The notes beneath the pieces were generated by a model. That model saw only the letters and a list, made by a program, of their open reading frames with translations. It was not told where the DNA came from and did no database searches. From Candidatus Zixiibacteriota bacterium (GTDB lineage Bacteria; Zixibacteria; MSB-5A5; GN15; FEB-12): a stretch of 33,025 bases of DNA. Position numbers and translations under genes: made by a program. Location: contig JAOUBJ010000014.1 in NCBI GenBank assembly GCA_029860345.1, forward strand, positions 117,731-150,755, in the 5' to 3' direction. Every line of letters begins with the position of its first letter. The first letter of the stretch is position 1. Shown here one piece after another: positions 9,397-27,299 of the stretch.

Positions 9397-9482
9397 GGAG
9401 AGGTGGCCGAGTGGTCGAAGGCGCACGCCTGGAAAGTGTGTATAGGTAACCCCTATCCAGGGTTCGAATCCCTGCCTCTCCG
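9397..9482 (+). tRNA. tRNA-Ser, anticodon GGA
   Basis: The sequence folds as a class II tRNA. The acceptor stem pairs GGAGAGG (9397-9403) with CCTCTCC (9475-9481), with G9482 as discriminator. The D-arm is GCCGAGTGGTCGAAGGC. The anticodon stem pairs CACGC with GTGTG around a loop reading CTGGAAA (anticodon GGA). A long variable arm (ATAGGTAACCCCTAT) precedes the T-arm with loop TTCGAAT. It reads serine codons UCC and UCU. The CCA end is not encoded, so it must be added enzymatically. Confidence 0.96.
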
Positions 9483-9928: not shown

Positions 9929-10129
9929 TGCTTATCAAAATAAACTCCCCGGGAGGAGGTCCAATTTGATTCTTACCAAGACCTAGCTTGATGCAATCTG
10001 TATGTTGCCGGAGATGGTGGACACTCTTTGCCTAAATCGTAAAGAACCACGACGGCGTTTCTATGGAAGGACCATACCGGTTCATCGACACTCCGGCATC
10101 AGTAATGACAAACACATGTGGAGGACAAC
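9929..10129 (+). promoter_or_regulatory. conserved leader RNA of RHS gene A
   Basis: This untranslated leader is shared with genes B and C. In order it holds a GGGAGGAGG Shine-Dalgarno (9951-9959) with a 6-codon micro-ORF, then a second short frame. A hairpin follows, with CTTTGC 10026-10031 paired to GTAAAG 10039-10044 and an outer helix of 10017-10020 with 10047-10050. The 13-nt hairpin ATGG-AAGGA-CCAT (10063-10075) is invariant in all three leaders. A CCGG/CCGG pair and the GTGGAGG ribosome-binding site come last. The promoter position and the conservation support transcription. Function is unknown. Confidence 0.55.
9966..9986 (+). CDS. predicted leader micro-ORF of RHS gene A (MILTKT)
   Basis: TTG start 6 nt after GGAGGAGG (9952-9959), six sense codons, then TAG. 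The encoded peptide would be M-I-L-T-K-T. It is one of five related copies in the window, whose differences are mostly silent. It could be a translated leader peptide or only a ribosome landing site. No homology outside the window can be tested here. Confidence 0.35.
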   Translation: MILTKT

Positions 10130-13100
10130 ATGCGCGCATTACACATTGTAATTCTGGTGGTGGTGGGCTTGATCGCAGTGGGGGCTGGCTTTGCTGAAGA
10201 ATATGTGGGCAGAATCGGCGACGTAGTCAGCTACCGCACAGGAGCTCTCATTCTCACGGAAACAGACGTCACTCTTCCCGGACGCCGTGGATTGGGAGTT
10301 GAAATCACCCGACACTACAACTCCCAAAACTATTCCGACTCTATCGTTGCCGGGGCCGGTACCGCTGTTCGATATGAAGAATACGGTACATACCACGATT
10401 ATCTGGGCCAGGGATGGCACATTGAGTATCCGTGCCTGTGGGAAAACGATACTTTGGGCTACACCAAAGCAATCAGATACCGGGACGGTTCCACTGAAAT
10501 CCTGTTGGTCAACACCGACACGCTCACCGATACGAATTGGCCGCTCAGAACTCGGGCGGGAGCCTTGGCCACCGACAACTTCCCTGACACGGTCAATAAT
10601 GATGAATTACTGCTGACCGACGGCACAAAATGGGTTTTCGCTCTGAGAGTCGACGACCGGAGACTCTTGACCAACATTGTTAACAGGTTTGGGGACACCA
10701 CCCACGTTTCGTACTTTAGCGGTACGGATTGGATTGAAAAAGTGACAAGTCCCATCGGGCTGGAAGTACTCTTTCAATACGGTGCCGAGGACACTTTGTA
10801 TGTTGGTGCTCCGCCGGCTGACACGGTTCGCCTGTGTCGTCTCAAATACCTGAACCACGACAGTAATTATGTGGAAGTCAAATATGATTACGATTGGAGC
10901 GAACAGGGTGGTCTTCTCACAAAAGTGGTTCATCCCAACGGCGACACCACAGTGTATGGATACAGCCACTCAGTAAAGTACCAGGATGTTGCCGATTATT
11001 GGGACACCAGCGGGGCGTGGGCGGATACCATTGACTACGATAACGACAATAGCTACAGCGCCGACGACCTGTACTTCCTGAAGCAGATCGATGATGCGGC
11101 CGGCGCCACAGTCCAATACACTTACCGGTGTTTTACCGTGCCGATAATAAACAGCGGTGATACAGCATACGTGGACTCATGTGGATATCAGGGGCGCATC
11201 GGTGTCAACAGGAGGATAGCCGATAACGACACGGTGTTCATCAGGTATGAGATGAGCTACCCAGGCCTTCACACCGAAGATGGCAATTCGACGCCTGTCA
11301 CAAGGGTCACGACTGTCGATCTGCCGGGCGGCGGAAAAGAAGAGTACTGGTATTTTTCGGAGAAGGAAGATGATCCGGGTGGCGTGGACGCCGTTTTCGG
11401 TCCGATGTATGAAGCCGGCTACCATCCTGGCGCCTTGTTCCAAAGACATGCTATATATGACGGCGATACCACTTGCACGGGTTACGGCTATGCGCAAGAG
11501 GAGATCGGCGAGATCGTGAGCAAGCTGGGAGAGGATACCGCGAAGGTAATGGCGGTAGATGAGGTTTGGGCACACCGTGGCGTCGATTATTGGTGGCCCC
11601 AATATGGATGGGATGGGGATTCCACCAATTGTTTCCAGAAAACCTCATCAAAGGACTGGTGGTCGACATATAGCGCCTTAGACTGGAAAGCAGCAGGCTT
11701 ACTGTACTATAGCGTTGCAGGCGAAAGAGAGACTGATACGGTGTCCGTCCTCGGTGCCGGCGACTACGCGAGTTCGGACTGGATTCCGTCGCCGTTTCCC
11801 ACCGATGACGTTTCCTTCAGGGTAGACAGTGTCACCAGCTATCGCTACATTCCATCGCTCAACATCGCCGTTATCGATGAAGTGTGGGATTTCCAGCAGA
11901 ACGACACCATGCCCTTCGCCACCACAAACAACTACACCTATGACTCCGCCAATAGTTATGTGATGGAGAAAGCTGTCACCACGCTTGACCCCGACTACTC
12001 GACCGACACTCTTGTAAATAGAACCACCGAATTCCTGTACGATGATTCTCTCATGTTGGGCGGTACGATCACCCCCTACGGTGACACCACATACTATGAG
12101 TGGGACCCGACATACTATGCATTCTTGTGGAAACGAGTCGATTCCAGCCTTGGAACGCTGGTGACAAATGAATACTACATCAATGGCCTGATGAAGCGCT
12201 CCATAGGACTCAATAGTGACACCACCGAGATATACTACGACAGTATTGATCGAGCCGTGGGCTGTCGCTTACCCCTGGAGACTGATACCTCGGCCATAAA
12301 GACATTCGACAGCGACAGTAACAAAGTAACCCTGGCGGTAAAAATCGACTCCGGGCTTACTTCCATGACCCGAGTCTACCAGGACAACTACTATCGTCCG
12401 ATCATGACTGCCTTGGAAGTGAATGACAGCACCGACATCATTGACTCTATAGTTTATAACGATCTCGGTCTGATCGAAAAGACACACCGACCCAGGTACG
12501 CCGATAGCGGTACTTTCTACTGGACGCAATACTACTACGACCAGAGTTTACAGAAGGTCAAGACGCTGGCTGTGGACGGTACCTCCGACACTTCCGAGGT
12601 GATCGATGTCTACACCGGCAAGTACACCGACTTCAGGGGGAACGTAACTATACGTGTGAAGGACATTCTCGGTCTCACGCTTATCGACACGCTTATCACA
12701 CTCGATTCCTCCGACACGCTGGTTACGACTTACGGTTATGATAAACACAACAAGATCATAGCCAACACCGGTCGAAACGGCATGACTCGCTACCTCATCC
12801 GCGACGACTGGGGTCGTGTGAGGAAGATTCTGGACTCCACCGACGTCGGTACCTTTGAGACCTGGCGTGACAGTCTGGGCAATCTCAGGCTCGCTCGCCA
12901 CAATACTGATACACTTTACAATTACTTCAAGTATGACAGCGATAAACGGCTGCTCGAAGAGGGTACGGTGTACAACGCCGATACTTCGCAGATCGATACC
13001 CAGACCTACCCCAGTTCCGGGAACACGATTTCACTGTCGAATCGCTATGATACGTATTCAGACGGTGACATCTTCGCCGACACTGCCGGTGGTCTTGGGT

Positions 13101-15430
13101 GTAGATTAGGGCGATTGACCGAACAGAGGTGCTACCAGTATGGGGTCATGGTAGGATATGACTACCTTTACTACGATGCTCGTGGTCGGATCGGGCTGAA
13201 GACAACATGGGTTACCGGCATGACCGACCCACTGAAGCTAAGGTATGAGTATTACGCCAACAACGCCCTGAAGAAAGTGATCTATCCTGACACTACTGAG
13301 ACCGAATACAGCCTCAGCCAGAGCGGTCGTATCAAAGGGATTTCAGGTGTGATCGGCATCGATTCAATCGAGTACGAACCGTGGGGGCCGGTTAAGAAAG
13401 CCGATTTCGTCAACAGCCTGACCACCAGGAATGAGTTTGACAGCCTGAGTCGAATTACCAAGACACTCAATTATTCCACGTACATGAACCTGTTCAGCAG
13501 AGAATACCAGTATACCGACCAATACTTGACCAGCGAATACGACCTCGACAGTGACGGTGATACCACCAATCTGGGAGAGGTCAGAGCGTTCGCCTACGAT
13601 ACTCTCGGACGACTGGTGTCGGCTTTCATGGAGGACCCCAACGAGTCGGCTGATACCGGCACAATTACCTACGATTACGACATTAGCAACAATCTCAACA
13701 CACGGTACTTCTCCGATGACGATACTCTGACGTACACTCGATTTGACGGACGCAATTGCGACAGCCTAATCGAATTCTCGTCCGATTCTACCTGGGACTT
13801 TAGCCGAAACGACCTGGGGCAGTTGACTACCATCGAGAAGACCTCAAGCGGTCCCCTGTGGGATGAGAGAATCAATTATGCTTATGACCATCGCGGGCTG
13901 GTGACATCGTTCGAGTACGAGCCCCGTATCCTGCAATTCGGCGACGCTCCCGATAGTGTCGTCAATCTGTACAACGGCGCCGGTCAGAAAGTCAAACAGA
14001 CTCACATATACAGGTGGTTTGATGTAGAAGTCGAACCCAGAGGTGGGTGGGTACGAGTGGCCTCGGACCATTACTACATCTGGTCCGGCAGCCGGGTTGT
14101 TCTGGAGCTTGAGAATTCCGACAGTGTCACTTATGTCAACGTATATGGGCTGGGTCAACGTCTGATGCAAAAGAACCTTGACGATGCCAGCGCCGACAGC
14201 ACGAACCACTATGTTGCTGACTATCACGGATCAATACGTTCATTTGTCGACTCCCGAGGTATGCCGGGTGATAGAATGATTGAGTACTATCCATACGGCG
14301 AGCTATACTCACAAGGTGGATTAGGTCATACTACGAATTGGTTCATCGGCAAGGAGAAAGACCAAACCGAGGAACTTGACTTTGGACCGAGATACTATGG
14401 TCGCAATATCGGACGATTCCTGGCGCCTGATCCTATTCTGGCCGGCCCTTCGCCATACAGTTATGCCGAAGGTAATCCGGTCATGATGTCCGATCCATCA
14501 GGGTTGGCCCCTACTTGGGGGAACATGAATACGTCCCCATTCTTGCTGAAGGTCGCGGTAGCGGCGGCTCAGGCGGAGTTCTCCTCGTTTGAGCGTCGAC
14601 GACAGGCAGCAATCTATGTACACAGACGTATCGGGTTCGACGGAGGGTCTCTGCCCGTTTCAGACGATATAGGATTCGACCAGGGGTCTTATCCCTTTGG
14701 AGACGACGACATGGGATTAGACCAGGGGTCTTATCCGTTTGGAGACGAGATAGGAATGGACCAGGGGTCTTATCCCTTCGGAGACGATATAGGATTAGAC
14801 CAGGGTTCTTATCCGTTTGGAGACGAGATAGGAATGGACCAGGGGTCTTATCCTTTCGGAGACGACATAGGATTCGACCAGGGGTCATTGCCAGTTACAG
14901 ACGGTATAATAGGAGGATTGGACCAGGGGTCATTGCCCGTGACAGACGGTATAATAGGAGGCTTGGACCAGGGGTCTTTGCCCGTGACAGACGGTATTAT
15001 AGGAGGCTTGGACCAGGGGTCTTTGCCCGTTTCTGACGGTATAATAGGAGGCTTGGACCAGGGGTCTTTGCCCGTGACAGACGGTATAATAGGAGGCTTG
15101 GACCAGGGGTCTTTGCCCGTCTCAGACGGTATAATAGGAGGAATGGACCAGGGGTCTTATCCCTTTGGAGACGACATAGGATTCGACCAGGGGTCTTTGC
15201 CGGTTACAGACGGTATAATAGGAGGCTTGGACCAGGGGTCTTTGCCCATCTCAGACGAGTTTTTCCGGTCGTTACGCGCCGGCTCATCAGGCATACCGCG
15301 GCTATCACGCAGGTATGGTCGTGCAGGCCGTTGGTACGGTACCCGAAGAGGGTCGCACAGCTTAATCGTACCGAGAGGTGGCCTATCCTACGGCCGCTCA
15401 ATCGTCAATGCTATTAGGTTGATGCGATGA
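10130..15430 (+). CDS. RHS/YD-repeat secreted protein A with minisatellite C-terminus
   Basis: Product of 1766 residues. The Sec signal peptide (about residues 1-22, cut near GFA-EE) directs export. Residues about 30-1400 are a Tyr/Asp-rich shell of YD repeats (for example YDYDISNNLNTRYFSDDD, YAYDHRGLV). The RHS core end follows: WFIGKEKD, DFGPRYY, GRFLAPDP and DPSGL at about 1455-1459. RHS shells generally encapsulate or display a variable C-terminal part. Here that part (about 1459-1766) is dominated by 15 units of DQGSYPFGDxIGx or DQGSLPVTDGIIGGL and ends in a Arg/Gly-rich tail shared with gene B. No toxin domain is recognisable. The ATG at 10130 is chosen over GTG 10118 because GGAGG (10120-10124) lies 5 nt upstream of the ATG. 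Confidence 0.93.
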   Translation: MRALHIVILVVVGLIAVGAGFAEEYVGRIGDVVSYRTGALILTETDVTLPGRRGLGVEITRHYNSQNYSDSIVAGAGTAVRYEEYGTYHDYLGQGWHIEYPCLWENDTLGYTKAIRYRDGSTEILLVNTDTLTDTNWPLRTRAGALATDNFPDTVNNDELLLTDGTKWVFALRVDDRRLLTNIVNRFGDTTHVSYFSGTDWIEKVTSPIGLEVLFQYGAEDTLYVGAPPADTVRLCRLKYLNHDSNYVEVKYDYDWSEQGGLLTKVVHPNGDTTVYGYSHSVKYQDVADYWDTSGAWADTIDYDNDNSYSADDLYFLKQIDDAAGATVQYTYRCFTVPIINSGDTAYVDSCGYQGRIGVNRRIADNDTVFIRYEMSYPGLHTEDGNSTPVTRVTTVDLPGGGKEEYWYFSEKEDDPGGVDAVFGPMYEAGYHPGALFQRHAIYDGDTTCTGYGYAQEEIGEIVSKLGEDTAKVMAVDEVWAHRGVDYWWPQYGWDGDSTNCFQKTSSKDWWSTYSALDWKAAGLLYYSVAGERETDTVSVLGAGDYASSDWIPSPFPTDDVSFRVDSVTSYRYIPSLNIAVIDEVWDFQQNDTMPFATTNNYTYDSANSYVMEKAVTTLDPDYSTDTLVNRTTEFLYDDSLMLGGTITPYGDTTYYEWDPTYYAFLWKRVDSSLGTLVTNEYYINGLMKRSIGLNSDTTEIYYDSIDRAVGCRLPLETDTSAIKTFDSDSNKVTLAVKIDSGLTSMTRVYQDNYYRPIMTALEVNDSTDIIDSIVYNDLGLIEKTHRPRYADSGTFYWTQYYYDQSLQKVKTLAVDGTSDTSEVIDVYTGKYTDFRGNVTIRVKDILGLTLIDTLITLDSSDTLVTTYGYDKHNKIIANTGRNGMTRYLIRDDWGRVRKILDSTDVGTFETWRDSLGNLRLARHNTDTLYNYFKYDSDKRLLEEGTVYNADTSQIDTQTYPSSGNTISLSNRYDTYSDGDIFADTAGGLGCRLGRLTEQRCYQYGVMVGYDYLYYDARGRIGLKTTWVTGMTDPLKLRYEYYANNALKKVIYPDTTETEYSLSQSGRIKGISGVIGIDSIEYEPWGPVKKADFVNSLTTRNEFDSLSRITKTLNYSTYMNLFSREYQYTDQYLTSEYDLDSDGDTTNLGEVRAFAYDTLGRLVSAFMEDPNESADTGTITYDYDISNNLNTRYFSDDDTLTYTRFDGRNCDSLIEFSSDSTWDFSRNDLGQLTTIEKTSSGPLWDERINYAYDHRGLVTSFEYEPRILQFGDAPDSVVNLYNGAGQKVKQTHIYRWFDVEVEPRGGWVRVASDHYYIWSGSRVVLELENSDSVTYVNVYGLGQRLMQKNLDDASADSTNHYVADYHGSIRSFVDSRGMPGDRMIEYYPYGELYSQGGLGHTTNWFIGKEKDQTEELDFGPRYYGRNIGRFLAPDPILAGPSPYSYAEGNPVMMSDPSGLAPTWGNMNTSPFLLKVAVAAAQAEFSSFERRRQAAIYVHRRIGFDGGSLPVSDDIGFDQGSYPFGDDDMGLDQGSYPFGDEIGMDQGSYPFGDDIGLDQGSYPFGDEIGMDQGSYPFGDDIGFDQGSLPVTDGIIGGLDQGSLPVTDGIIGGLDQGSLPVTDGIIGGLDQGSLPVSDGIIGGLDQGSLPVTDGIIGGLDQGSLPVSDGIIGGMDQGSYPFGDDIGFDQGSLPVTDGIIGGLDQGSLPISDEFFRSLRAGSSGIPRLSRRYGRAGRWYGTRRGSHSLIVPRGGLSYGRSIVNAIRLMR
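14636..15259 (+). repeat. in-frame coding minisatellite in RHS gene A
   Basis: Fifteen contiguous units of 39, 42 or 45 nt, all multiples of three, encode two related motifs: DQGSYPFGDDIGF-type (13-14 residues) and DQGSLPVTDGIIGGL-type (15 residues). Units 2-6 and 13 are the first type, and units 7-12 and 14-15 the second. Unit 1 is degenerate. Several 45-nt units differ by only one or a few bases, which points to recent expansion by slippage or unequal recombination. The array is acidic and Gly-rich. Confidence 0.95.
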
Positions 15431-15530
15431 CGTGAGGTTTAGCACAGGTATCGGCGTCAGAATCTACTGCGCTTCTGGTGCCCCCTGAAATCTGATGCGA
15501 TGTCGACTGCTTTGATATCTGTTTAATAGA

Positions 15531-15563
15531 CCACGGACCTGGTAATTCGGGTCCGTGGCTTTT
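15531..15563 (+). terminator. terminator after RHS gene A
   Basis: CCACGGACC (15531-15539) pairs perfectly with GGTCCGTGG (15550-15558) and is followed by CTTTTCC. The same hairpin occurs after gene B. The rest of 15431-15634 shows no gene, only sequence homologous to the region after gene B. Confidence 0.75.
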
Positions 15564-15634
15564 CCGCGGGCACTGCACTTGGGATAATATCCTGTAAAAA
15601 ACGATAATTCGGCCCAGTTAGCTATGTTTAGTGC

Positions 15635-15663
15635 TTGACAAAGGCCTCTCGACCTAGTATGCT
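15635..15663 (+). promoter_or_regulatory. promoter of RHS gene B
   Basis: TTGACA (15635-15640), 17-nt spacer and TATGCT (15658-15663). It is preceded by GTTTAGTGC as in gene A. Transcription would start near 15670, giving a leader of about 345 nt. Confidence 0.7.
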
Positions 15664-15705
15664 ATTGCGTGTTGGTTGGAACATACCCTCGGGAGGAGGT
15701 CCAGT

Positions 15706-15726
15706 CTGATTCTTTACAAAACTTAG
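15706..15726 (+). CDS. predicted leader micro-ORF B1 (MILYKT)
   Basis: CTG start 6 nt after GGAGGAGG, six codons, TAG stop. The peptide would be M-I-L-Y-K-T if CTG is read as Met. It is the first of three copies in this leader. Confidence 0.3.
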   Translation: MILYKT

Positions 15727-15778
15727 CTTGATACAATCTGTGTACTGATCTAAACATGCCCTCGGGAGGAGGTCCAGT

Positions 15779-15799
15779 CTGATCCTTAACAAAACTTAG
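15779..15799 (+). CDS. predicted leader micro-ORF B2 (MILNKT)
   Basis: CTG start with the same Shine-Dalgarno spacing, ending in TAG. The peptide would be M-I-L-N-K-T. The Ile codon is ATC rather than ATT, a silent change from copy B1. Confidence 0.3.
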   Translation: MILNKT

Positions 15800-15851
15800 C
15801 TTGATGCAATCTGTGTACTGATCGAAATATGCCCTCGGGAGGAGGTCCAAT

Positions 15852-15872
15852 TTGATTCTTACGAAAACCTAG
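15852..15872 (+). CDS. predicted leader micro-ORF B3 (MILTKT)
   Basis: TTG start 6 nt after GGAGGAGG, ending in TAG. The peptide is the same as in leader A and leader C, although three codons differ silently from copy A (ACG for ACC, AAA for AAG) or copy C (ATT for ATA). Confidence 0.35.
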   Translation: MILTKT

Positions 15873-16015
15873 CTTGATGCTATCCGTGTGTTGCCGGAGA
15901 TGGTGGACAATCTTTGCCTGAAGAGCAAAGAACCACCGCAGCGTTTCTATGGAAGGACCATACCGGTTCATCGCCGCTCCGGCTTTAGTAATGACAAACA
16001 TCTGTGGAGGACAAC

Positions 16016-19000
16016 ATGCGCGCATTACACATTTTGATTCTGGTGGTGGTGGGCCTGATCGCCGTGGGGGTCGGTTTTGCCGAAGAGTATGTGGGCAGAA
16101 TTGGCGACCTTGTCAACTACCGTTCAGGAGCACTCACCCTCATGGAGACAGACGTCACCCTACCCGGGCGCCGTGGGCTGGGGGTCGAGATCACTCGATA
16201 CTATAGTTCCCAAAACTATTCCGACTCTATCGTTGCCGGCGCCAGTACGGCTATTCGATATGAAGAATATGGTTCTACCCACGACTATTTGGGCCAGGGA
16301 TGGCACATCGAATATCCGTATATGTGGGAGATGGATGCCTTTGGCTACAGAAAAGCACTCAGATACGAAGATGGTCGGGTAGAAGTCCTACTGGTCAACA
16401 CCGACCCAGTCACCAAAACCAATTGGCCCCTCAAAACTCGGGCCGGAGCCTTGGCCACAGACAACTTCCGTGACATGTACGATGATGATGAAATACTACT
16501 TACCGATGGCACAAAGTGGGTTTTCGCTCTGAGGCTCAACTCCAAGAGGCTCTTGACCAACATTGTCAACAAGTACGGGGACACCACCCACGTTTCCTAC
16601 TTTTCCGGCAGAACCTGGATCGAAAAGGTGACGAGTCCTATCGGCCTGGAGGTACTGTTCCAGTACGGCTGCGAAGATTCCTTGTATCCCGGTGTTCCGC
16701 CGGGTGACACAGCCCGCTTGTGTCGCCTCAAATATCTGAATCATGACAGCAACTATGTGGAAGTCCAGTATGATTACGATTGGAGTGAGCAGGACGGTCT
16801 TCTCACCAAGGTGATTCATCCCAACGGCGATTCCACATTGTATGGATACACCGATACCGTATACTACCAGGATGTGGCAGATTATTGGGATACCAGCGGG
16901 TCATGGGCGGACACTATTGACTACAACAATGACAACACATACACCGCCGACGATCTATACTTCCTGAATGAGATCACTGATGCCGCCGGCGCCCAGGTCA
17001 ATTTCACTTATCGATGTTTTGCCGTGCCAATCGTAGAGAGTGGTGATAGCCCTGACTTAGACAGTTGTGCATACCAGGGACGCATCGGTGTCACCAGAAG
17101 AATGGCCGACAACGACACGGTGTTCATCAGGTATGAACTGAGCTACCCCGGTCTTCACACCGAATATGATAATTCCACGCCGATCACCAGAGTCACAACT
17201 GTTGACCTGCCCGGCGGCGGAAAAGAAGAGTACTGGTATTTTTCGGATAAGGAAGATGTGCCTGGCGGGAGTGATGAGTTTTTCGGCATCACTTACGGGG
17301 CGGGCTACCACCCGGGCAATCTTTTTCAGAAACACGCCATATATGACGGCGATACCGTTTGCACTGGTTTCGGCTACAGACAAGGTGCGATCGGCGAGTT
17401 CGTGAGCGAGTCCGGTTCGGACACAGTGACAATTAAGGCGGTAGATGAGGTCTGGACACACCGCGGCGTTCGTTACTGGTGGCCCCAATATGGATGGGAG
17501 GCGGATTCCACGAATTGTTTCGTGGCTACCTCATCAAAGGACTGGTGGTCGACATATAGCGCCTTAGACCTGGACGTGGTAGGCTTGCCGTTCTATAACG
17601 TAGAAGCCGAGAGAGAGAGTGATTCGCTGTCGACTTATGGAGCAGGCGGCTACGCGAGCTCTGGTTGGATTCCATCGCCGTTTCCCACCGATGACGTTTC
17701 CTTCACTGTAGATAGCGCCACCGACTACAGCTACATTTCAGCTCATAATATTGCTCTCGTCGAAGAAGTATGGGATTTCCAGCAGAATGACACCATGCCG
17801 GAGGCCAAGTTTGTAAACTACGAGTATGACGCTAGTAATAAGTATGTGTTGGAGAAAGCTGTCACGAAGCTTGACGACGATTACCACAGCGACTCTCTGA
17901 AGAGAACTACTTCGTACTTGTACAACGGCTCTCTCATGTTGAGCGGCACGATAAACCCCAGCGGTGACACCACCTGCTATCAGTGGGACCCAACGTACAA
18001 CGCATTCTTGTGGAAGAAAGTCGACTCTACGCTCGGAACGCTTGTTACAAATGAGTACTACATCAATGGGCAGATGAAGCGTTCCATAGGACTCAACAAT
18101 GACACTACCGAAATATACTACGACAGTGTCGACCGAGTCGTGGCCTGTCGGTTACCCCTGGAAACTGATACATCGGCCATAAAGACCTTCTACAGCGACA
18201 GTAACATGGTTACCATGGCGGTGAAAATCGACACCGGACTCACCTCCATGACCCGAATCTACCAGGATAAATACTATCGCACAGTCAAAACGGCGCTGGA
18301 AGTAGATGCCAGTACCGACATAGTTGACTCCATAGTTTATAACGCAACCGGTCAGGTGGAAAAAACACACCGATCCAAGTATGCCGACAGTGGTACTACC
18401 TACTGGACGCAATACTACTACGACCAGAGCCTGCAGAGAGTTAAGACGCTGGCCGTGGACGGCACCACCGACACTTCCGAAGTGATTGACGTGTACACGA
18501 GTAAGTACACCGACTTCAGAGGCAACGTGACCATAAATGTTAAGGACATCCTCGGTAACAAACTTGTGGACACGCTTATCACGCTCGATTCCTCTGACAC
18601 GCTGGTTACGACTTACAATTATGACAAACACAACAACATCATATCCACTACCAATCCAAGCGGCAATACCCGCTACTATGAGTATGACGACTGGGGTCGA
18701 CCGAAGAAGATACTGGATTCGGTGGACGTCGGGTCCACGGAAGTGTGGCGCGACAGCTTGGGCAATCTCAGGCTCTTACGGCACAACAGTGAAGCAACCT
18801 ACACCTACTTCAAGTATGACAGCGATAAGCGCGTAATTGAAGAAGGGACGGTGCAATCCGCCGACACTACACAAATCGATACTCAGACCTACCCCAGTTC
18901 CGGGAACACGGTTTCGCTGACGAATCGATATGATTCCTATTCCTCCTCTGCCATCGCCTCCGACACAGCCGGTGGTCTTGGTTGCAGCAAGGACCGGTTG

Positions 19001-21118
19001 ACCGAACAAAGGTGTTTCCAGGGTGGCGACACCGTGGGGGTTGACTTTATCTACTATGATGCTCGCGGTCGGGTCGGGTTGAAGACAACCTGGATTCACG
19101 GTATGACCGACTCCCTGAAGCTCAAGTATGAGTATTACGCCAACAACGCCCTGAAGAAAGTGACCTATCCCGACAATACCGAGACCGAATACAGCCTCAG
19201 CCAGAGCGGTCGTATCAAGGGAATTTCAGGCGTGATCGGCATCGATTCATTGGAGTACGAACCCTGGGGGATTGCCAAGAACATCGACTTCGTGAACGGT
19301 CTGGCTATCAGGAATGAGTATGACAGCCTGAGTCGAGTAACCAAGACGCTCAATTATTCCTCGTACATGAACCTGTTCAGCAGAGAATACCAGTATACCG
19401 ACCAATACTTGACAAGCGAATACGATCTCGACAGTGACGGTGATACCACAAATCTGGGAGAGGTCAGAGCGTTCGCCTTCGACACTCTTGGTCGCTTGGT
19501 ATCGGTTTTCATGGAAGACCCCAATGAATCCGCCGATACCGGTACTCTTACCTATGATTACGACATAAGCAACAATCTCAACACTCGATACTTCTCTGAT
19601 GACGACACACTGACCTATACTCGTTTCGACGGTCGCAATTGCGACAGCTTGGTTGGTTTCTCCTCGGATTCAACCTGGGAATTCACCCGAAATGACCAAG
19701 GGCAGTTGACCAGAATCGAGAAGACCTCAGCCGGCCCCCTCTGGGATGACAGGATCAATTACGCTTATGACCATCGCGGACTGTTGACCTCGGTCGAATT
19801 CTATCCTCGTGTCCAACAATTCGGCGACAAACCTGATAGTGTCCAAAACCTATACAACGGCGCCGGACAAAAGGTCAAGCAGACCCATATATACAGGTAC
19901 TTTGATTCAGAAGTCGGTCCGCGAGGTTCGTGGGTGCGAATAGCATCTGACCAATACTACATTTGGTCCGGCAGCCGGGTCGCCCTGGGCCTTAACAACC
20001 CGGACAGTGTTAGTTACATTAACGTCTATGGCCTGGGTCAACGTCTGCTGCGCAAAGACCTCGACGACGCCAGCGCCGACAGCACCTGCCACTACGTCAA
20101 TGACTTTCAGAACTCGGTACGATCCTATGTCGACTCCCGAGGTCTGCCGGGCGATAGAATGATCGAATACTATCCCTACGGCGGGGTCTACTCACAAGGT
20201 GGCTTGGGCTATACCAAGCATTGGTTCATCGGCAAGGAGAAAGACAAGACTTTAGAGCTTGACTTCGGTCCGAGATACTACAATCGATCTGTCGGGCGGT
20301 TCCTGGCCCCTGATCCGATTATGGCAGGCCCCTCACCATATAGTTACTCCGAGGGCAATCCGATCATGATGTCCGACCCAACGGGGATGGCCCCCGAGGC
20401 GGGGTACCCGAATGCGTCTGATTTTCCGCTGGAGTGCGCAGCCGAGGCGGCACGCGCGGAGTTCGCAGCTTCGGAGCGATTCAAGTGCTGCGAGATGTAC
20501 ACTGACGAGCGGGCCAAGTGGATTATGGACCATATCTGTGAACCTCGCAGGCGGCTTCTCGAATCGCTTGAGGAATCGAAATGGGTCACGATCGATGGGC
20601 CACCCTTGTGGATGACTCTCTTCACGCCCCCTGGGCGTATCCGCATCAGGGTGCCAAGTAAGCCGAGATCGCTGTTCGGATGGTACGAACCCAATTTCGA
20701 TTGGTTGGACATCTTCGATGGCGGCTGGAAGAACTGTCGACATTTAAGCACGGAATGGACTACCGGAGTAGTGGATGGCGGTTCACCTTCGGAGTACGAT
20801 GGATTCAACGGGGGGCTTACCGCGCCGATTGACATTCCGCCGGTCCCACGCAAGTACAGGCTTTCAAGTACTTGGGATGCGCTGACCAATAGGGTCCTAA
20901 ACGAAGTACTGAATAACCCGGAAGCACTCTTGGGCGATCCTGATCTCAGCCAACCGGGACTGGCGGCTGAGTCGTTCCTCAATCAATACAACACATCGAT
21001 GCGGAGTAGTTACTACCTACACTACGGTACCGGCGATGGGTTGCACAGCTTGATCGCACCGGGAGGGGGCCGATCCTACGGTTACTCTATCGTCGATGCC
21101 ATAGGGCTACTACGATGA
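16016..21118 (+). CDS. RHS/YD-repeat secreted protein B with unrecognised C-terminal domain
   Basis: Product of 1700 residues, a close paralogue of A over the whole shell. It has a Sec signal peptide (about 1-22), YD repeats to about residue 1400, then WFIGKEKD, DFGPRYY, GRFLAPDP and DPTGM at about 1454-1458. The C-terminal region (about 1458-1700) is unlike that of A in its middle. It has a Cys-containing, charged stretch (residues near FKCCEMYTDERAKWIMD), a Trp/Pro-rich part and a helical part. It ends with about 30 residues homologous to the end of A (HSLIAPGGG, SYGYSIVDAI). I recognise no catalytic motif, so toxin activity is only a possibility. The ATG at 16016 follows GGAGG at 16006-16010. 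Confidence 0.93.
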   Translation: MRALHILILVVVGLIAVGVGFAEEYVGRIGDLVNYRSGALTLMETDVTLPGRRGLGVEITRYYSSQNYSDSIVAGASTAIRYEEYGSTHDYLGQGWHIEYPYMWEMDAFGYRKALRYEDGRVEVLLVNTDPVTKTNWPLKTRAGALATDNFRDMYDDDEILLTDGTKWVFALRLNSKRLLTNIVNKYGDTTHVSYFSGRTWIEKVTSPIGLEVLFQYGCEDSLYPGVPPGDTARLCRLKYLNHDSNYVEVQYDYDWSEQDGLLTKVIHPNGDSTLYGYTDTVYYQDVADYWDTSGSWADTIDYNNDNTYTADDLYFLNEITDAAGAQVNFTYRCFAVPIVESGDSPDLDSCAYQGRIGVTRRMADNDTVFIRYELSYPGLHTEYDNSTPITRVTTVDLPGGGKEEYWYFSDKEDVPGGSDEFFGITYGAGYHPGNLFQKHAIYDGDTVCTGFGYRQGAIGEFVSESGSDTVTIKAVDEVWTHRGVRYWWPQYGWEADSTNCFVATSSKDWWSTYSALDLDVVGLPFYNVEAERESDSLSTYGAGGYASSGWIPSPFPTDDVSFTVDSATDYSYISAHNIALVEEVWDFQQNDTMPEAKFVNYEYDASNKYVLEKAVTKLDDDYHSDSLKRTTSYLYNGSLMLSGTINPSGDTTCYQWDPTYNAFLWKKVDSTLGTLVTNEYYINGQMKRSIGLNNDTTEIYYDSVDRVVACRLPLETDTSAIKTFYSDSNMVTMAVKIDTGLTSMTRIYQDKYYRTVKTALEVDASTDIVDSIVYNATGQVEKTHRSKYADSGTTYWTQYYYDQSLQRVKTLAVDGTTDTSEVIDVYTSKYTDFRGNVTINVKDILGNKLVDTLITLDSSDTLVTTYNYDKHNNIISTTNPSGNTRYYEYDDWGRPKKILDSVDVGSTEVWRDSLGNLRLLRHNSEATYTYFKYDSDKRVIEEGTVQSADTTQIDTQTYPSSGNTVSLTNRYDSYSSSAIASDTAGGLGCSKDRLTEQRCFQGGDTVGVDFIYYDARGRVGLKTTWIHGMTDSLKLKYEYYANNALKKVTYPDNTETEYSLSQSGRIKGISGVIGIDSLEYEPWGIAKNIDFVNGLAIRNEYDSLSRVTKTLNYSSYMNLFSREYQYTDQYLTSEYDLDSDGDTTNLGEVRAFAFDTLGRLVSVFMEDPNESADTGTLTYDYDISNNLNTRYFSDDDTLTYTRFDGRNCDSLVGFSSDSTWEFTRNDQGQLTRIEKTSAGPLWDDRINYAYDHRGLLTSVEFYPRVQQFGDKPDSVQNLYNGAGQKVKQTHIYRYFDSEVGPRGSWVRIASDQYYIWSGSRVALGLNNPDSVSYINVYGLGQRLLRKDLDDASADSTCHYVNDFQNSVRSYVDSRGLPGDRMIEYYPYGGVYSQGGLGYTKHWFIGKEKDKTLELDFGPRYYNRSVGRFLAPDPIMAGPSPYSYSEGNPIMMSDPTGMAPEAGYPNASDFPLECAAEAARAEFAASERFKCCEMYTDERAKWIMDHICEPRRRLLESLEESKWVTIDGPPLWMTLFTPPGRIRIRVPSKPRSLFGWYEPNFDWLDIFDGGWKNCRHLSTEWTTGVVDGGSPSEYDGFNGGLTAPIDIPPVPRKYRLSSTWDALTNRVLNEVLNNPEALLGDPDLSQPGLAAESFLNQYNTSMRSSYYLHYGTGDGLHSLIAPGGGRSYGYSIVDAIGLLR

Positions 21119-21355: not shown

Positions 21356-21555
21356 TGTTGATCGAAACATACCCTCGGGAGGAGGTCCACCTTGATACTT
21401 ACCAAAACCTAGCTTGCCGCAGTCCGTGTGTTGCCGGAGTGCGTGGACGATCTTTGCCAAGGAGGTAAAGAACCACGACAGCGTTTCTATGGAAGGACCA
21501 TACCGGTTCATCGACGCTCCGGTATTAGTAATGTCAAACATCTGTGGAGGACAAC
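21356..21555 (+). promoter_or_regulatory. conserved leader RNA of RHS gene C
   Basis: Single-module version of the leader. In the hairpin, TCTTTGCC (21451-21458) pairs with GGTAAAGA (21464-21471). The outer helix CGTGG (21442-21446) with CCACG (21473-21477) has its first pair as C-G where leader B has G-C. ATACCGG and CCGGTAT near the 3' end form a perfect 7-bp stem here. The GTGGAGG ribosome-binding site is unchanged. Confidence 0.55.
21392..21412 (+). CDS. predicted leader micro-ORF of RHS gene C (MILTKT)
   Basis: TTG start 6 nt after GGAGGAGG (ending at 21385), six codons and TAG. The peptide is identical to copies A and B3, with Ile encoded by ATA. Confidence 0.35.
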   Translation: MILTKT

Positions 21556-24500
21556 ATGAGAGTGAAACACATTATCACAGGCCTACTGATCATTGTCGCG
21601 ATTCTCGCGGTCCACGGCAGTGTCATTGCCGAAGGATTCATAGGTCCTATCGGGGACCGCATCGATTATTCTTCCGGCGCGTTAACATTAAGCGAAACCG
21701 ACGTCACGATTCCCGGTAGGCGTGGCTTGGACGTAAATATCGTCCGCTCTTACACAACTGCGAACTATTTGCCGGACGTTGATATTATCGACAACCCTGA
21801 TACTCACTGCGTGTATCAGCGACCATTCGACTCTTCGTCAAACAAATACATGGGGCTCGGTTGGCATATCGAGTTCCCTTATCTGACATACAATGACAGC
21901 GCGACCACCTTAACAAATCAGAATGGAAGTTCTGAGGCATTACTGGTGAATCTGGATACGTTGACCAACATGACCTATCCGCGGAAGACTCGCGATCTGT
22001 CGATCCTCACCAATTATACATACCCCAGTGCGACGACCGAGGTGATGCTGTGCCCCGATGGTACCAAGCTGGAGTTTGGAAAGAAACTGGGCCACAGGAA
22101 ACTCATGACCAAGATGTACAATCGCTATGGTGACTATATAGAAGTGACCTATTGGACCAATGAGTACATCAAATATGTCACAAGTCCGATCGGCCTCAAA
22201 GTACATTTTCAGTATTGCGATGAGGATTCGGTCTATTCTCTCACTTCATCGCCTACGGACGATGTTCGTCTCAGCAGCCTGCTTTGGTTGAATCACGAGG
22301 GAGACACGCTTAGGGTGAGCTATGAGTATAACTGGAGTAAGGCTGGGCTGCTGCATAAAGTCATACATGCCAATGGTGATAGCACCATGTATGACTACAC
22401 TACCGACGTCTTCTATAACGACGTGGCCGACTATTGGGACACGGCAGCCACCTGGGCTGATACCCTCAGTTACGATGACACCCTGCACTATCACTCCAAC
22501 CAACTCCATTACATGGGAAAGATCACCGATCCTGGCGGCGCTCAGGCCGAATACCGGTATAGGGCGTTTATGATCCCGACCTATAGCGGATGTGATCATA
22601 ACACATTCGATGACCCTGTCGATGAATTCAAGAACTATATCGGTGTCAATCGAAGGATTGCCGATGGCGACACGCTGCTGATCAAATACGAATTAAGCTA
22701 TCCCGGATTGGAAGTCATTGAGCCCGAGATGGAGTTCGCAGGGATGGTCAGCCGGGTGACGACTGTCTTGCACCCATCCGGTGGAGAGCAGGAGTTTTGG
22801 TACTTCCTGGACAAGGAGTGCGGATATGTGCTCAATGAGAACTTAATGCCGTGGGTCTTCTCTGCCGGCTACTATCCCGGCATGCTGTATCAGAAGCATT
22901 CCATCTTTGATGGGGATACCGTGTGTACCGGTTATAGTTATGGCAATTCGCTCGGCAGCGGTATCGTCACGATCGGAGACGTGATTGACTCAACTGGAGC
23001 CACTGGGTATTATAAGGCCCCGGCTACCTTCCTGATTCACGTGGGCGTAGCTTATTATCATCCGGACCTGCACTTCGACTCCTTATCGTTCACGGCGACC
23101 TCGTCCAAAGAGTGGCGTTCGACTATTCTGGAAAAGGATATGGATGCCGCCGGGATTGTGACTCGGAAGATCGAAAGTGAAAGGCTTTCCCAGTGGGTAG
23201 CTACTGATACTTCATATACGAACAAGAACGGCCTGTATGATGCTACCGGTTGGATTCCATCACCCTACCCCAGCGATACCTTGTGGTTTACGATGGACAG
23301 TGTTACTGCCTACACATATGTGCCATCGAGGAACCTCACTTTAGCCGATACAGTTTGGAGTCTGTTCCAAAACGACTCTCTGGTTTACGCCACGTACACC
23401 GCCTACTATTATAATTCCAGCAATAACTATGTAGTTGACTCGGTGGTGGCCACCCTTGATCCCGATTACTCCGATGACACCCTCTCCCGTCGAAAGACCA
23501 CCTACGAATACTACTCTAGTAACGGCATGGTGAAGTGTGAGACAGACTATCGAGGAGACAAGACCTGGTGGGAGTATGACACCCTTTACAATGCCTTTAC
23601 CTGGAAGGAAACGGACTCGGCCCTGGGAGATCTTGTCACTTACGACTACTATCCCAACGGTCAGATGAAAACGGAAACCGGGCTGAATGGTGCGGTAACG
23701 GAATACTATTACGACAGCCTGGGGCGTGACCTGGGTATCAAAATGCCTCTGGAAGATGCCGACGACACCACGATCATCAACATCTACGCTTCCGGGAACG
23801 TATCAGGTAATTCGGCAAAAATAGATGACAGCACTCGCATCGTTACCAAATCGGTACACGATACCCACTTCAGAAAGGTCAAGACGATTCTGGAAGTAGA
23901 TGCGACCGCGACAATCGTGGATTCTATCGTCATGAATGAAGCCGGATTGATCGCAAAACAAAGTCGGGCCAAGTATGCAGATTCCGGCAGCACTTATTGG
24001 ACCGAGTACTATTACGACCAGAGTACGCGAAAGGTCAAGACGGTCCTGGCCGACGGCTCGAAAGATTCGGTCAGGTATGTTGATGAATTCACGACTTTGT
24101 ATGACAGTCGTCGTGGCCAGCGGTCGATTAGCGTTATCGACTTAGCCGGCAACAAACTATGTGATTCCATTTTTGAAGTCGGCGACACAACCAGTCTCAT
24201 GGGCGTTATTACCTATTCCTATGACAAGCTGGGCAATGTGATTGCAGTCACTGACCTTGAAGGTATAACCCGCCAATGGGAATACGATGACTGGGGTCGA
24301 ATCAAGAAAGTGACGGATGCCGATATCGGTACGATTGAGTGCTGGTACGATGAGTGGAGTGATCTGCGATTGGTCCGACACAACACCGAGACCGACTACA
24401 CTTATTTCATCTACGACACTATCTCACACAGATTATTGGAGTCAGGCACCGTTTCAAGCCCGAGCACCGATTCACTCGTCAACCGCACCTACCCTTCATC

Positions 24501-26856
24501 CGGTACTACCGTGGCCGTAATGAATCGCTACGACTCATATTCTACAGCCTCAATAGCCACAGATACGGCCGGCGGACTCGGCAATTGTTTGGGCCAACTG
24601 ACCGAACAGATATCATTTCAGGGCGGAAGTGCAGTCGACTCCACCTTCTTCTACTATGACGCCAGAGGGCGCATCGGTCAGCAGACCACCTGGATCACCG
24701 GGCTTCCCGATCGTCAAAAGCTCAAGTTTGAGTACTTTGCCAACGACGGTCTCAAGAAGATCACTTATCCCGATAACTCCACCAACGAGTATGAATACTT
24801 CCAGACTGGTCGACTGAGCGGCATCACAGGTATCATTGGTGAGGACTCGGTCGAGTACGAGGCTTGGGGCGCCGTTCGAGAGGCCAAGTTTGTAAACAGC
24901 GTGGTAACCACGAATTCGTATGACAGCCTCAGTCGCCTGATAAAGACCATCAACCGTTCTGCCTATATGAAGCTGTTTTGTCGCGAATATGGTTATGACA
25001 ATCACTTCATAGACAAAGAGTACGACCTGGATTCGTCCGGAACCAGAACGGCGCTGGGTGAAATCAGGACTTACGGCTATGACTCTCTCAGTCGACTTGT
25101 CTCGGCGTTCATGGAAGACCCCAACGAGTCGGCCGACACGATCACCATGGCCTATGATTACGACCTCAATGGTAATCTAAACACTCGATGGACTTCCGAT
25201 GACGATTCACTGATGTACACTCGTTTCAACGGCAGCAATTGCGACAGTGTCATTGACTTTTCCGCCGATTCAACCTGGGACTTCACCCGAAATGACCGAG
25301 GGCTGTTGACCAGAATCGAGAAGACCTCAGCCGGCCCCCTCTGGGATGACCGAGTCAATTATGCTTATGATCATCGCGGTCTGGTGACATCAGTAGAATT
25401 CGAGCCCCGTGTCATGCAATTCGGTGACAAACCGGACACTGTTCTCAATCAGTACAACGCCGCCAGTCAGAAGGTCAAACAGACCCATATATACAGATAC
25501 TTTGACTCAGAAGTCGGTCCTCGAGGTTCGTGGGTACGGATTGAATCGGACCGATACTATGTCTGGGTCGGCGATAATGTCATCCTGGAGTATGACAACA
25601 CCGACAGTCTGGCCAACATCAACGTGTATGGTTTGGGTCAACGTCTGCAGCGAAAGGACCTCAACGATGTCAGCGCCGACAGTACCTGCCACTACATCAA
25701 TGACTATCAGGGCTCGGTGCGTTCTTTTGTCGACTCCCGAGGTATCCCGGGCGACAGAATGATCGACTACTATCCCTACGGCGAGTTATACTCACAGGGT
25801 GGTTTGGGTCATACACCGCACTGGTTCATCGGCAAAGAGAAAGACAAGACTGAGGAGCTTGACTTTGGACCGAGGTACTACAATCGTGCGGTCGGACGAT
25901 TCATGGCGCCTGACCCAGCTCTGGCCGGCCCGTCACCATATAGTTATGCCGATGGTAATCCAGTAATGGGGTCCGATCCATCCGGGTTGATAACTGTAAA
26001 CCACATGACGCCGGAACAGATTCGAGCCGCGATAGATGCCTGTGTTGCGAACGACAGGGCCGACGCCCAGGCCTATGCCAATTTTGCTGCCGAGTCAAGC
26101 GTCAAAGGGGAATGGGCCGGCTATTACCACCCAAATACGCACCAACTAACTGGCATTATTGCTCCTCCAGGTCCCCAGGAGATCGGCTTTTTGGTTGCTG
26201 GCACCAGTCAGTCGGAAGCCATCAGAGGGACAAAGTGGCTACAAGATCAGAGACGCCTAATGAGAGGTTTGCCAGCTATTAACACGGAGTGGTATAGCGA
26301 CCACGTGCAGACAAGGACCGGCCGCTGGCAGATTGGAGGTCTGCGCGGGGGATACACCAGGACAACGCTCCAAGTTGGGCAGTATACTCTCTCGTCGGTC
26401 AACTACACGGTTACCTCTTACACTCCGTCAGTTTCCAGGATGCTGGCCAGCGCGGATCCTTTCCCTGCCTATCAGGCCATGGGCGACCTGGCAAAGGTTG
26501 AAAAGGCAGGGAAATTGATGACGGGAGGAATCATTGGCAATCTCGTCGGGCTAGCCGCTGAACTTATCGCCGGGGGATTGGATCAACGTTCGCCTGAGTA
26601 TAAGTGGCTTATGAGAATCGCGGCAGTTGGTCACGCAACGGACGCGATATTCCTTACCTCCAGGGGAATCACCTTGATTACCGCTGGATTAGGCACAACC
26701 CACACTGGAATCGGTCCCGTGGTAGGTTTGGGTGTCGGGATTCCCTTGACCTTGTTGGGACTCTTCGAGGGATACCAAGCCTGGGATTGCTGGCAAAGGA
26801 GCATCGAGTACCCTGAGGACTTTATTGGACCGATACCGCCGGATCGGTATAGATGA
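21556..26856 (+). CDS. RHS/YD-repeat secreted protein C with hydrophobic C-terminal domain
   Basis: Product of 1766 residues, a more diverged paralogue of A and B. The signal peptide spans about residues 1-27. The N-terminal motif SSGALTLSETDVTIPGRRGLDV corresponds to that of A and B. The YD shell runs to about 1400, and the core end WFIGKEKD, DFGPRYY, GRFMAPDP and DPSGL lies at about 1474-1478. The 289-residue C-terminal region begins with a helical segment (MTPEQIRAAIDACVAND). It ends with two Gly-rich hydrophobic stretches (GGIIGNLVGLAAELIAGGL and the ITLITAGLG...GVGIPLTLLGLF region), which could insert into a membrane. No known toxin family is recognised. ATG 21556 follows GGAGG. Two small genes follow at short distance on the same strand. 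Confidence 0.92.
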   Translation: MRVKHIITGLLIIVAILAVHGSVIAEGFIGPIGDRIDYSSGALTLSETDVTIPGRRGLDVNIVRSYTTANYLPDVDIIDNPDTHCVYQRPFDSSSNKYMGLGWHIEFPYLTYNDSATTLTNQNGSSEALLVNLDTLTNMTYPRKTRDLSILTNYTYPSATTEVMLCPDGTKLEFGKKLGHRKLMTKMYNRYGDYIEVTYWTNEYIKYVTSPIGLKVHFQYCDEDSVYSLTSSPTDDVRLSSLLWLNHEGDTLRVSYEYNWSKAGLLHKVIHANGDSTMYDYTTDVFYNDVADYWDTAATWADTLSYDDTLHYHSNQLHYMGKITDPGGAQAEYRYRAFMIPTYSGCDHNTFDDPVDEFKNYIGVNRRIADGDTLLIKYELSYPGLEVIEPEMEFAGMVSRVTTVLHPSGGEQEFWYFLDKECGYVLNENLMPWVFSAGYYPGMLYQKHSIFDGDTVCTGYSYGNSLGSGIVTIGDVIDSTGATGYYKAPATFLIHVGVAYYHPDLHFDSLSFTATSSKEWRSTILEKDMDAAGIVTRKIESERLSQWVATDTSYTNKNGLYDATGWIPSPYPSDTLWFTMDSVTAYTYVPSRNLTLADTVWSLFQNDSLVYATYTAYYYNSSNNYVVDSVVATLDPDYSDDTLSRRKTTYEYYSSNGMVKCETDYRGDKTWWEYDTLYNAFTWKETDSALGDLVTYDYYPNGQMKTETGLNGAVTEYYYDSLGRDLGIKMPLEDADDTTIINIYASGNVSGNSAKIDDSTRIVTKSVHDTHFRKVKTILEVDATATIVDSIVMNEAGLIAKQSRAKYADSGSTYWTEYYYDQSTRKVKTVLADGSKDSVRYVDEFTTLYDSRRGQRSISVIDLAGNKLCDSIFEVGDTTSLMGVITYSYDKLGNVIAVTDLEGITRQWEYDDWGRIKKVTDADIGTIECWYDEWSDLRLVRHNTETDYTYFIYDTISHRLLESGTVSSPSTDSLVNRTYPSSGTTVAVMNRYDSYSTASIATDTAGGLGNCLGQLTEQISFQGGSAVDSTFFYYDARGRIGQQTTWITGLPDRQKLKFEYFANDGLKKITYPDNSTNEYEYFQTGRLSGITGIIGEDSVEYEAWGAVREAKFVNSVVTTNSYDSLSRLIKTINRSAYMKLFCREYGYDNHFIDKEYDLDSSGTRTALGEIRTYGYDSLSRLVSAFMEDPNESADTITMAYDYDLNGNLNTRWTSDDDSLMYTRFNGSNCDSVIDFSADSTWDFTRNDRGLLTRIEKTSAGPLWDDRVNYAYDHRGLVTSVEFEPRVMQFGDKPDTVLNQYNAASQKVKQTHIYRYFDSEVGPRGSWVRIESDRYYVWVGDNVILEYDNTDSLANINVYGLGQRLQRKDLNDVSADSTCHYINDYQGSVRSFVDSRGIPGDRMIDYYPYGELYSQGGLGHTPHWFIGKEKDKTEELDFGPRYYNRAVGRFMAPDPALAGPSPYSYADGNPVMGSDPSGLITVNHMTPEQIRAAIDACVANDRADAQAYANFAAESSVKGEWAGYYHPNTHQLTGIIAPPGPQEIGFLVAGTSQSEAIRGTKWLQDQRRLMRGLPAINTEWYSDHVQTRTGRWQIGGLRGGYTRTTLQVGQYTLSSVNYTVTSYTPSVSRMLASADPFPAYQAMGDLAKVEKAGKLMTGGIIGNLVGLAAELIAGGLDQRSPEYKWLMRIAAVGHATDAIFLTSRGITLITAGLGTTHTGIGPVVGLGVGIPLTLLGLFEGYQAWDCWQRSIEYPEDFIGPIPPDRYR

Positions 26857-26888: not shown

Positions 26889-27299
26889 ATGCCGAATCCA
26901 CTTACTAAAAGAGAGATAGTTGTCATCTGTGCCGTCGGTGCGGTCGGTATCCTTCTGACACTGCTCAGCCACTTCCTGAACTGGCCGGTGGCTTTGCAGT
27001 TGCTCTTTCCGGCCGCCATGCTGCCGGGTGTCCATTGGATAATGCGCCGGTTGGGTCTGACGGGCCAGAGTCCGGCCAAGTCTCAGCCTGACGGCATCGA
27101 CTTGCCCACCGAAGCAGTCAAAAAGCGCAGGGCATTAGGTGCGCTGCTCACCGGCTTACAGGTGCTGGGAATGGTGGCGATCTTCGCCATTTGTTCGACA
27201 GTCTTTCAATGTAATGGGATCACAGTTGCTGGTTCGTGCGTAGTTGTGGTCGCGGCACTTCAGGTGCTAAAGATTTACGTGAAGCAAGGGCGGCTGTAG
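26889..27299 (+). CDS. small membrane protein, candidate immunity or accessory factor of RHS C
   Basis: I do not recognise the family. The 136-residue protein has about four hydrophobic segments: two near the N-terminus (about 10-28 and 31-48) and two near the C-terminus (about 85-103 and 107-124). A polar linker (TGQSPAKSQPDGIDLPTEAVKKRR) separates the pairs. It starts 32 nt after gene C with no terminator visible between, so co-transcription is likely. Small membrane proteins in this position often protect against a membrane-acting effector. Given the hydrophobic tail of protein C this is a reasonable inference, but only that. Confidence 0.75.
   Translation: MPNPLTKREIVVICAVGAVGILLTLLSHFLNWPVALQLLFPAAMLPGVHWIMRRLGLTGQSPAKSQPDGIDLPTEAVKKRRALGALLTGLQVLGMVAIFAICSTVFQCNGITVAGSCVVVVAALQVLKIYVKQGRL

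What the first reader, a model, noticed from the sequence alone, without database searches (positions are those of the whole stretch)
14636..15259. Coding minisatellite as the whole middle of the C-terminal region of RHS protein A
Fifteen acidic, Gly-rich units of two interleaved types replace what would normally be the effector domain. All unit lengths are multiples of three and neighbours are nearly identical, so the array can expand and contract in frame. The type order (six SYPF or related, six SLPV, then SYPF, SLPV, SLPI) shows block rearrangement. It may form an extended or ligand-binding tail on a surface protein.
Basis: seen in the sequence. Interest (0 to 1): 0.5.

Follow-up and report, generated by a model that had tools for sequence, protein, structure and literature searches.

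The report
Repeat array inside RHS protein tail
In one bacterium, the variable tip of a large shell-forming RHS protein, usually a toxin in relatives, consists mostly of fifteen near-identical acidic repeats kept in reading frame, and what this tip does is not known.

Summary
The array is real: 15 in-frame units of 39, 42 or 45 nt at window 14633-15265. It makes up 211 of the 307 residues after the PxxxxDPxGL motif of RHS protein A. Within unit types 14 of 18 distinct changes are synonymous, so the encoded protein is selected. The array has 39 Asp/Glu and no Lys, Arg or His. Its arm (42 aa) and tail (54 aa) resemble paralogue B but are shifted to basic (aligned parts: 0 of 20,000 draws). Of 99 RHS tip stretches examined in the phylum, only A has such an array. 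No convincing array homologue was found elsewhere. AlphaFold2 gives a low-confidence beta-solenoid, a known artefact class. Unit order fits nested tandem duplications. Length variation could not be tested. Best reading: a non-enzymatic, polyanionic repeat cargo of an RHS shell, paired with basic arms. A new variant of a known kind; function unproven.

The parts
10118..15430 (+). RHS/YD-repeat protein A, 1770 aa; N-terminal hydrophobic segment read by eye as a Sec signal peptide, DUF6531, RHS-associated core
   Evidence: ORF; DUF6531; TIGR03696 at aa 1390-1463; signal peptide by inspection only
14429..14506 (+). End of RHS core: two DP motifs 16 residues apart and NPVMMSDPSGL (PxxxxDPxGL), predicted self-cleavage site
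   Evidence: motif definition in passages of PMC8636562 and PMC8765631
14507..14632 (+). N-side arm of the C-terminal region (42 aa, 1464-1505); resembles RHS B, net +4 in A and -5 in B over 42 aligned residues
14633..14671 (+). Unit 1, hybrid type (GFDGGSLPVSDDI)
14672..14869 (+). Units 2-6, SYPF type (42 nt, then 4 x 39 nt), with a 78-bp higher-order duplication (units 3-4 and 5-6)
14870..15139 (+). Units 7-12, SLPV type (6 x 45 nt)
15140..15178 (+). Unit 13, SYPF type
15179..15265 (+). Units 14 (SLPV) and 15 (SLPI, degenerate end)
15266..15430 (+). C-terminal tail, 54 aa plus stop, 13 Lys/Arg and no Asp/Glu; its last 31 aa are 21/31 identical to the end of RHS B
16004..21118 (+). Paralogue RHS B: core 79% identical to A (1147 of 1461 aligned residues), no array, similar C-terminal end
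21544..26856 (+). Paralogue RHS C, different C-terminal tip

Best explanation
RHS A is an exported RHS-shell protein whose polymorphic C-terminal cargo has been rebuilt as an in-frame coding minisatellite. The array grew by nested tandem duplication of 39-45-nt units (supported by unit distances). Its amino-acid sequence has been kept by purifying selection within each unit type (shown). The cargo is most likely a non-enzymatic, polyanionic, Gly-rich, extended or beta-rich repeat. The basic arm and basic tail on either side pair with the acidic repeats while the cargo sits in the shell (the charge difference from B is shown, the pairing is inferred). Self-cleavage at DPSGL then frees or exposes it as a surface, adhesive or ligand-binding polymer (inferred; export is inferred from a signal peptide read by eye).
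For: In-frame array, 15 units. pS/pN 0.247/0.028 in seven SLPV units and 0.290/0.048 in five SYPF units; random change from the consensus gives as many synonymous changes in 0 of 5,000 and in 0.44% of draws. Distinct changes 8 synonymous to 2 and 6 to 2, P 0.0007 and 0.0015. Core and PxxxxDPxGL intact. Array 39 D/E, 0 K/R/H. Arm and tail more basic than in B by 9 and 6 charges, reached by 0 of 1,420 and 0 of 1,431 core windows and, matched for number of differing sites, by 4, 17 and 0 of 20,000 draws for arm, tail and both. No coding-strand ORF that looks like an immunity gene behind A, whereas C, D and two G019 tips are followed by open frames of 136 to 191 aa. No NCBIfam domain in the tip; one Pfam hit, judged spurious.
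Against: No structure, ligand, export or cleavage was tested. The first DP motif is DPILA, not DPLGL, and the spacing is 16 rather than 17 residues. B also lacks an immunity-like ORF although its tip has no array, so that absence is not specific to the array. Between the two unit types amino-acid change is common (pS 0.33, pN 0.15 over both types together). Which of A and B changed charge is unknown; the comparison rests on one pair of genes and on hand-picked ungapped aligned stretches. A repeat spacer in front of a small basic effector would give the same sequence pattern.
Confidence: 0.42

Rival explanations
1. Polymorphic-toxin reading: the 54-aa basic tail, shared in part with B, is the small effector, and the acidic array is a spacer, shield or delivery polymer.
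For: Tail end conserved between A and B (21/31) while no clear similarity is seen in the region before it; tail strongly basic in A; self-cleavage motif intact; other bacterial RHS tips are toxins (passages, section).
Against: B's tail is not basic (3 K/R, 3 D/E in its last 54 aa); no immunity-like coding-strand ORF behind A, and behind B only 43- and 101-aa frames that run into the start of C; no T6SS sheath gene (VipB) in the genome.
Confidence: 0.25
2. By-product reading: slippage expanded a dispensable part of a dead or redundant RHS tip, and the array has no role of its own.
For: Array seen in one gene of one genome only; strongly skewed codon use, as expected from recent amplification of a founder unit (ATA for 19 of 21 Ile in the array, 12 of 72 in the core); A, B and C are tandem paralogues.
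Against: Excess of synonymous change in both unit types, intact 1,770-aa frame, and the matching charge difference in the flanks.
Confidence: 0.22
3. Folded beta-solenoid adhesin: the 15-aa units each make one coil of a solenoid, giving a rigid rod on the surface.
Against: Single-sequence models, mean pLDDT 45.3 and 48.8; SYPF units of the first block stay unstructured; AF2 models of random perfect-repeat sequences were classed as beta-solenoids in 32 of 78 cases (PMC11795689); Z below about 13 for repeats may mean only a common arrangement (note).
Confidence: 0.08
4. Assembly artefact: the true unit number differs or the array is chimeric.
For: Near-identical units; a collapse in unit number is possible.
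Against: In-frame junctions, graded unit divergence, distinct end units; longest exact repeat only 53 bp.
Confidence: 0.03

Closest known systems
RHS/YD-repeat polymorphic toxins (T6SS Rhs, TcC, bacterial teneurin-like proteins; WapA recalled)
   Same: RHS-associated core, PxxxxDPxGL border, variable tip, tandem paralogues; in relative G019, displaced core-plus-tip modules
   Different: Most of the tip is a tandem minisatellite with no recognised enzyme domain, no immunity-like coding-strand ORF behind it, no PAAR found in the protein and no VipB in the genome
Intragenic tandem repeats of bacterial proteins and adhesins (e.g. Legionella repeats PMC2639597, L. reuteri cmbA PMC13339910; search listing with abstract starts only)
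   Same: Tandem repeats inside a coding region, in cmbA of a surface protein
   Different: Not in a known anchored adhesin; sits in the cargo position of an RHS shell; length variation not shown here
C-terminal displacement in rhs genes (PMC2935791, search listing with abstract start only)
   Same: Conserved core with exchanged ends
   Different: In A the differing part lies between two stretches that resemble B, and it is a repeat array

Membership tests
RHS/YD-repeat protein | RHS-associated core domain | tested here: met
   TIGR03696 55.8 bits over cut-off 32.5, aa 1390-1463
RHS/YD-repeat protein | PxxxxDPxGL border motif with a second aspartate motif upstream | tested here: met
   NPVMMSDPSGL present; upstream motif is DPILA with 16 residues between; the published case has two DPLGL motifs 17 apart
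RHS polymorphic toxin | Recognisable toxin domain in the tip | tested here: inconclusive
   No NCBIfam match in the tip at E up to 1; Pfam gave only PF11092, over its cut-off by 2.6 bits but with no stretch passing on its own; a tip without a model can still be a toxin
RHS polymorphic toxin | Immunity gene directly downstream | tested here: not met
   Coding-strand ORFs of 25 aa or more that start in 15431-16003 are 49 and 85 aa and both run into the start of B; the other strand has frames of 43-79 aa there, some overlapping B or the leader repeats
T6SS Rhs effector | PAAR N-terminus; T6SS in genome | tested here: not met
   No PAAR in the Pfam scan at E up to 0.001; no VipB in the genome
Length-variable coding minisatellite | Unit number varies between strains | not testable with these tools
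   One genome of the species held; no match to the core-end-plus-tip query in six same-genus genomes at E up to 1e-8
Beta-solenoid repeat protein | Regular solenoid fold | tested here: inconclusive
   Low-confidence AF2 models; VIA-align Z up to 9.8

The most novel reading that the evidence does not exclude
RHS shells can carry a non-enzymatic cargo: a polyanionic repeat polymer of tunable length, packed with the help of two basic arms that co-evolved with it, and released or displayed by the same self-cleavage that other RHS proteins use for toxins.
Probability: 0.2. Interest if true: 0.65.

Novelty: new variant of a known kind. Interest (0 to 1): 0.4.

Why it matters
The bacterial RHS tips described in the paper passages seen here are toxins. 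A selected repeat array in that position, with compensating charge in its flanks, would mean that the RHS shell also serves as a container for structural or binding polymers whose length can change by tandem duplication, and it offers a simple test of what an RHS shell can hold.

Tried and rejected
PDB sequence search with the tip: no match at E up to 10. Pfam PF11092 (neuronal P311) on the array: E 3.1e-6, 27.6 bits over a cut-off of 25, but no stretch passing on its own; treated as low-complexity chance. Viral contigs: 17 stretches matched a pattern, none a relative; phages: no match at E up to 0.1. Plasmids: 8 records; the two I translated, a Lactobacillus Ser/Thr-rich LysM protein and a Desulfoscipio frame that contains a stop, match by composition only, and the other six were not read. 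Named genome contigs: 2 loci, matching the RHS core end only. A G003 hit at E 0.0075 has five stops in frame and is not taken as a relative. A unit profile against RHS B, C and D found no relic unit; C gave one row at score -3.9. BFVD fold search with the second model: 0 of 150 matches at E up to 0.001. The first alignment of the leader had D on the wrong strand, redone. Literature: no paper on minisatellites in RHS tips in three searches of an open library; one of the three required the word Zixibacteria, my guess from memory. The phylum of the genome was not identified. Ice-binding 3ult and trimeric-adhesin heads (3ntn, 7o23) appear with rmsd above 8 and were not taken as relatives.

Full report
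The array. The finding is correct in substance. RHS protein A (window 10118-15430, 1770 aa) carries 15 head-to-tail units at 14633-15265. Unit lengths are 39, 42 or 45 nt, all multiples of three. Lag-45 DNA identity is 0.58 against at most 0.32 in 1,000 shuffles. Two unit types occur: G[LMF]DQGSYPFGD[DE]I, mostly 13 aa, and G[LF]DQGSLPV[TS]DGIIG, 15 aa. Unit 1 is a hybrid and unit 15 a degenerate end. Only the protein A frame is free of stops.

How it grew. Units 3-4 and 5-6 differ by 1 and 2 nt, a 78-bp duplication. Units 13, 14 and 15 are closest, in order, to units 6 or 4, 7 and 12, with 2, 2 and 1 differences (full distance table). Nested tandem duplications explain the order; no transposition or inversion is needed. 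The longest exact internal repeat is 53 bp.

Selection on the protein. Within seven SLPV units pS is 0.247 and pN 0.028; within five SYPF units 0.290 and 0.048. Counting each distinct change once per codon column, 8 of 10 and 6 of 8 are synonymous, against expected fractions of 0.267 and 0.207 (P 0.0007 and 0.0015). The units are copies of one another, so these P values are approximate. Units 1, 2 and 15 were left out of these counts. Between the two types amino-acid change is common (pS 0.33, pN 0.15 over both types together). For comparison, the A and B cores have pN/pS 0.27.

Anatomy of the tip. The RHS-associated core is over its cut-off. It ends in NPVMMSDPSGL, which fits the PxxxxDPxGL border quoted in passages of PMC8636562 and PMC8765631. 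After it come 307 residues: a 42-aa arm that resembles protein B, the 211-aa array, and a 54-aa tail. The last 31 residues of the tail are 21/31 identical to the end of B. The middle of B's tip shows no clear similarity in the alignment, and a unit profile finds no relic there.

Charge. The array has 39 Asp/Glu and no Lys, Arg or His. The arm is net +4 in A and -5 in B over 42 aligned residues; the tail is +6 in A and 0 in B over 31. No core window of the same length shows such a shift (0 of 1,420 and 0 of 1,431; windows overlap). As the flanks are more diverged than the core, I also drew equal numbers of differing core sites at random: 4, 17 and 0 of 20,000 draws reach the shift for the arm, the tail and both. 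This is one pair of genes, the aligned stretches were picked by hand from the alignment, and which of the two genes changed is unknown.

Context. The genome (G000, 4.76 Mb, 35 contigs) has four RHS cores: A, B and C in tandem and D on contig 7. C is followed by a 136-aa ORF and D by a 191-aa ORF. In relative G019 the main gene, interrupted by one in-frame stop, and the first of two displaced core-plus-tip modules are followed by open frames of 167 and 153 aa (stop to stop) with lipoprotein-like starts, judged by eye. Behind A the coding-strand ORFs are 49 and 85 aa and run into B; behind B they are 43 and 101 aa and run into C. VipB of T6SS is absent from the genome, and protein A has no PAAR in the Pfam scan. 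The N-terminus looks like a Sec signal peptide by eye; no predictor was available.

How rare. With the tip as query, 1 of 132 genomes of the phylum has a match at E up to 0.001, and that is the genome itself. The RHS core occurs in 44 of 132 genomes, with 110 matches. I examined 99 tip stretches (95 ending at a stop; some overlap, and the shortest are 35-81 aa fragments), from 41 of the 44 genomes. Left out were 5 loci in which my motif found no core and 6 rows not taken (five partial or contig-edge rows and G019:C27). Protein A matches itself at lag 15 in 30 of 30 positions; the next best stretch reaches 11 of 30 at any lag from 5 to 60. TRF rows outside A were two short two-copy repeats and one 11-bp repeat of 4.3 copies. 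No phage record or viral contig gave a relative; eight plasmid records gave weak matches, two of which I translated and found compositional.

Structure. Two single-sequence AlphaFold2 runs (mean pLDDT 45.3 and 48.8) model the 45-nt units as a beta-solenoid with block pLDDT up to 74 and 72 and leave the 39-nt units of the first block unstructured. AF2 models of random perfect-repeat sequences were classed as beta-solenoids in 32 of 78 cases (PMC11795689, abstract and section 3.2.1 read). I therefore do not rely on the models.

Reading. The best reading is a non-enzymatic, polyanionic repeat cargo of an RHS shell, with basic arms pairing to it. Shown: frame, selection within types, charge pattern, rarity in the phylum. 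Inferred: export, cleavage, packing, surface or binding role. The closest rival is a small basic effector behind a repeat spacer; the next is a by-product of slippage. Bacterial RHS tips in the papers seen here are toxins (PMC13018210, abstract and one section read), so a selected repeat tip would be a new variant. No statement that it is unknown in print goes beyond the three searches.

Noticed in passing
window 9940-10012, 15680-15898 (three copies), 21366-21438; G000:C7 6283-6362 (in L020): A 73-nt leader element with an invariant CGGGAGGAGGTCCA core stands before each of the four RHS genes (1, 3, 1 and 1 copies), and a search of the whole genome found these four places only at E up to 0.01. 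Upstream of A and B lies a TTGACA/TATGCT promoter-like sequence read by eye. It may be a shared regulatory leader.
   Followed up: partly
G019:C23:140766-148848 (in L021): Relative G019 has an RHS gene interrupted by one in-frame stop, followed by two displaced core-plus-tip modules, with small lipoprotein-like open frames behind the main gene and the first module, as in orphan rhs tips with immunity genes.
   Followed up: partly
window 14870-15223: Most 45-nt SLPV units contain TATAATAGGAGG, a -10-like box next to a Shine-Dalgarno-like run (seen by eye); probably chance amplified by the repeat.
   Followed up: no
window 14633-15265: Codon use in the array is skewed against the core of the same gene: ATA for 19 of 21 Ile (core 12 of 72), TCT for 14 of 19 Ser (core 4 of 106), as expected from amplification of one founder unit.
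   Followed up: yes
window 9397-9482: A tRNA gene (Rfam RF00005) lies upstream of the RHS cluster.
   Followed up: no
window 26889-27299: A 136-aa hydrophobic ORF right after RHS C, a candidate immunity gene; no Pfam family over its cut-off.
   Followed up: partly
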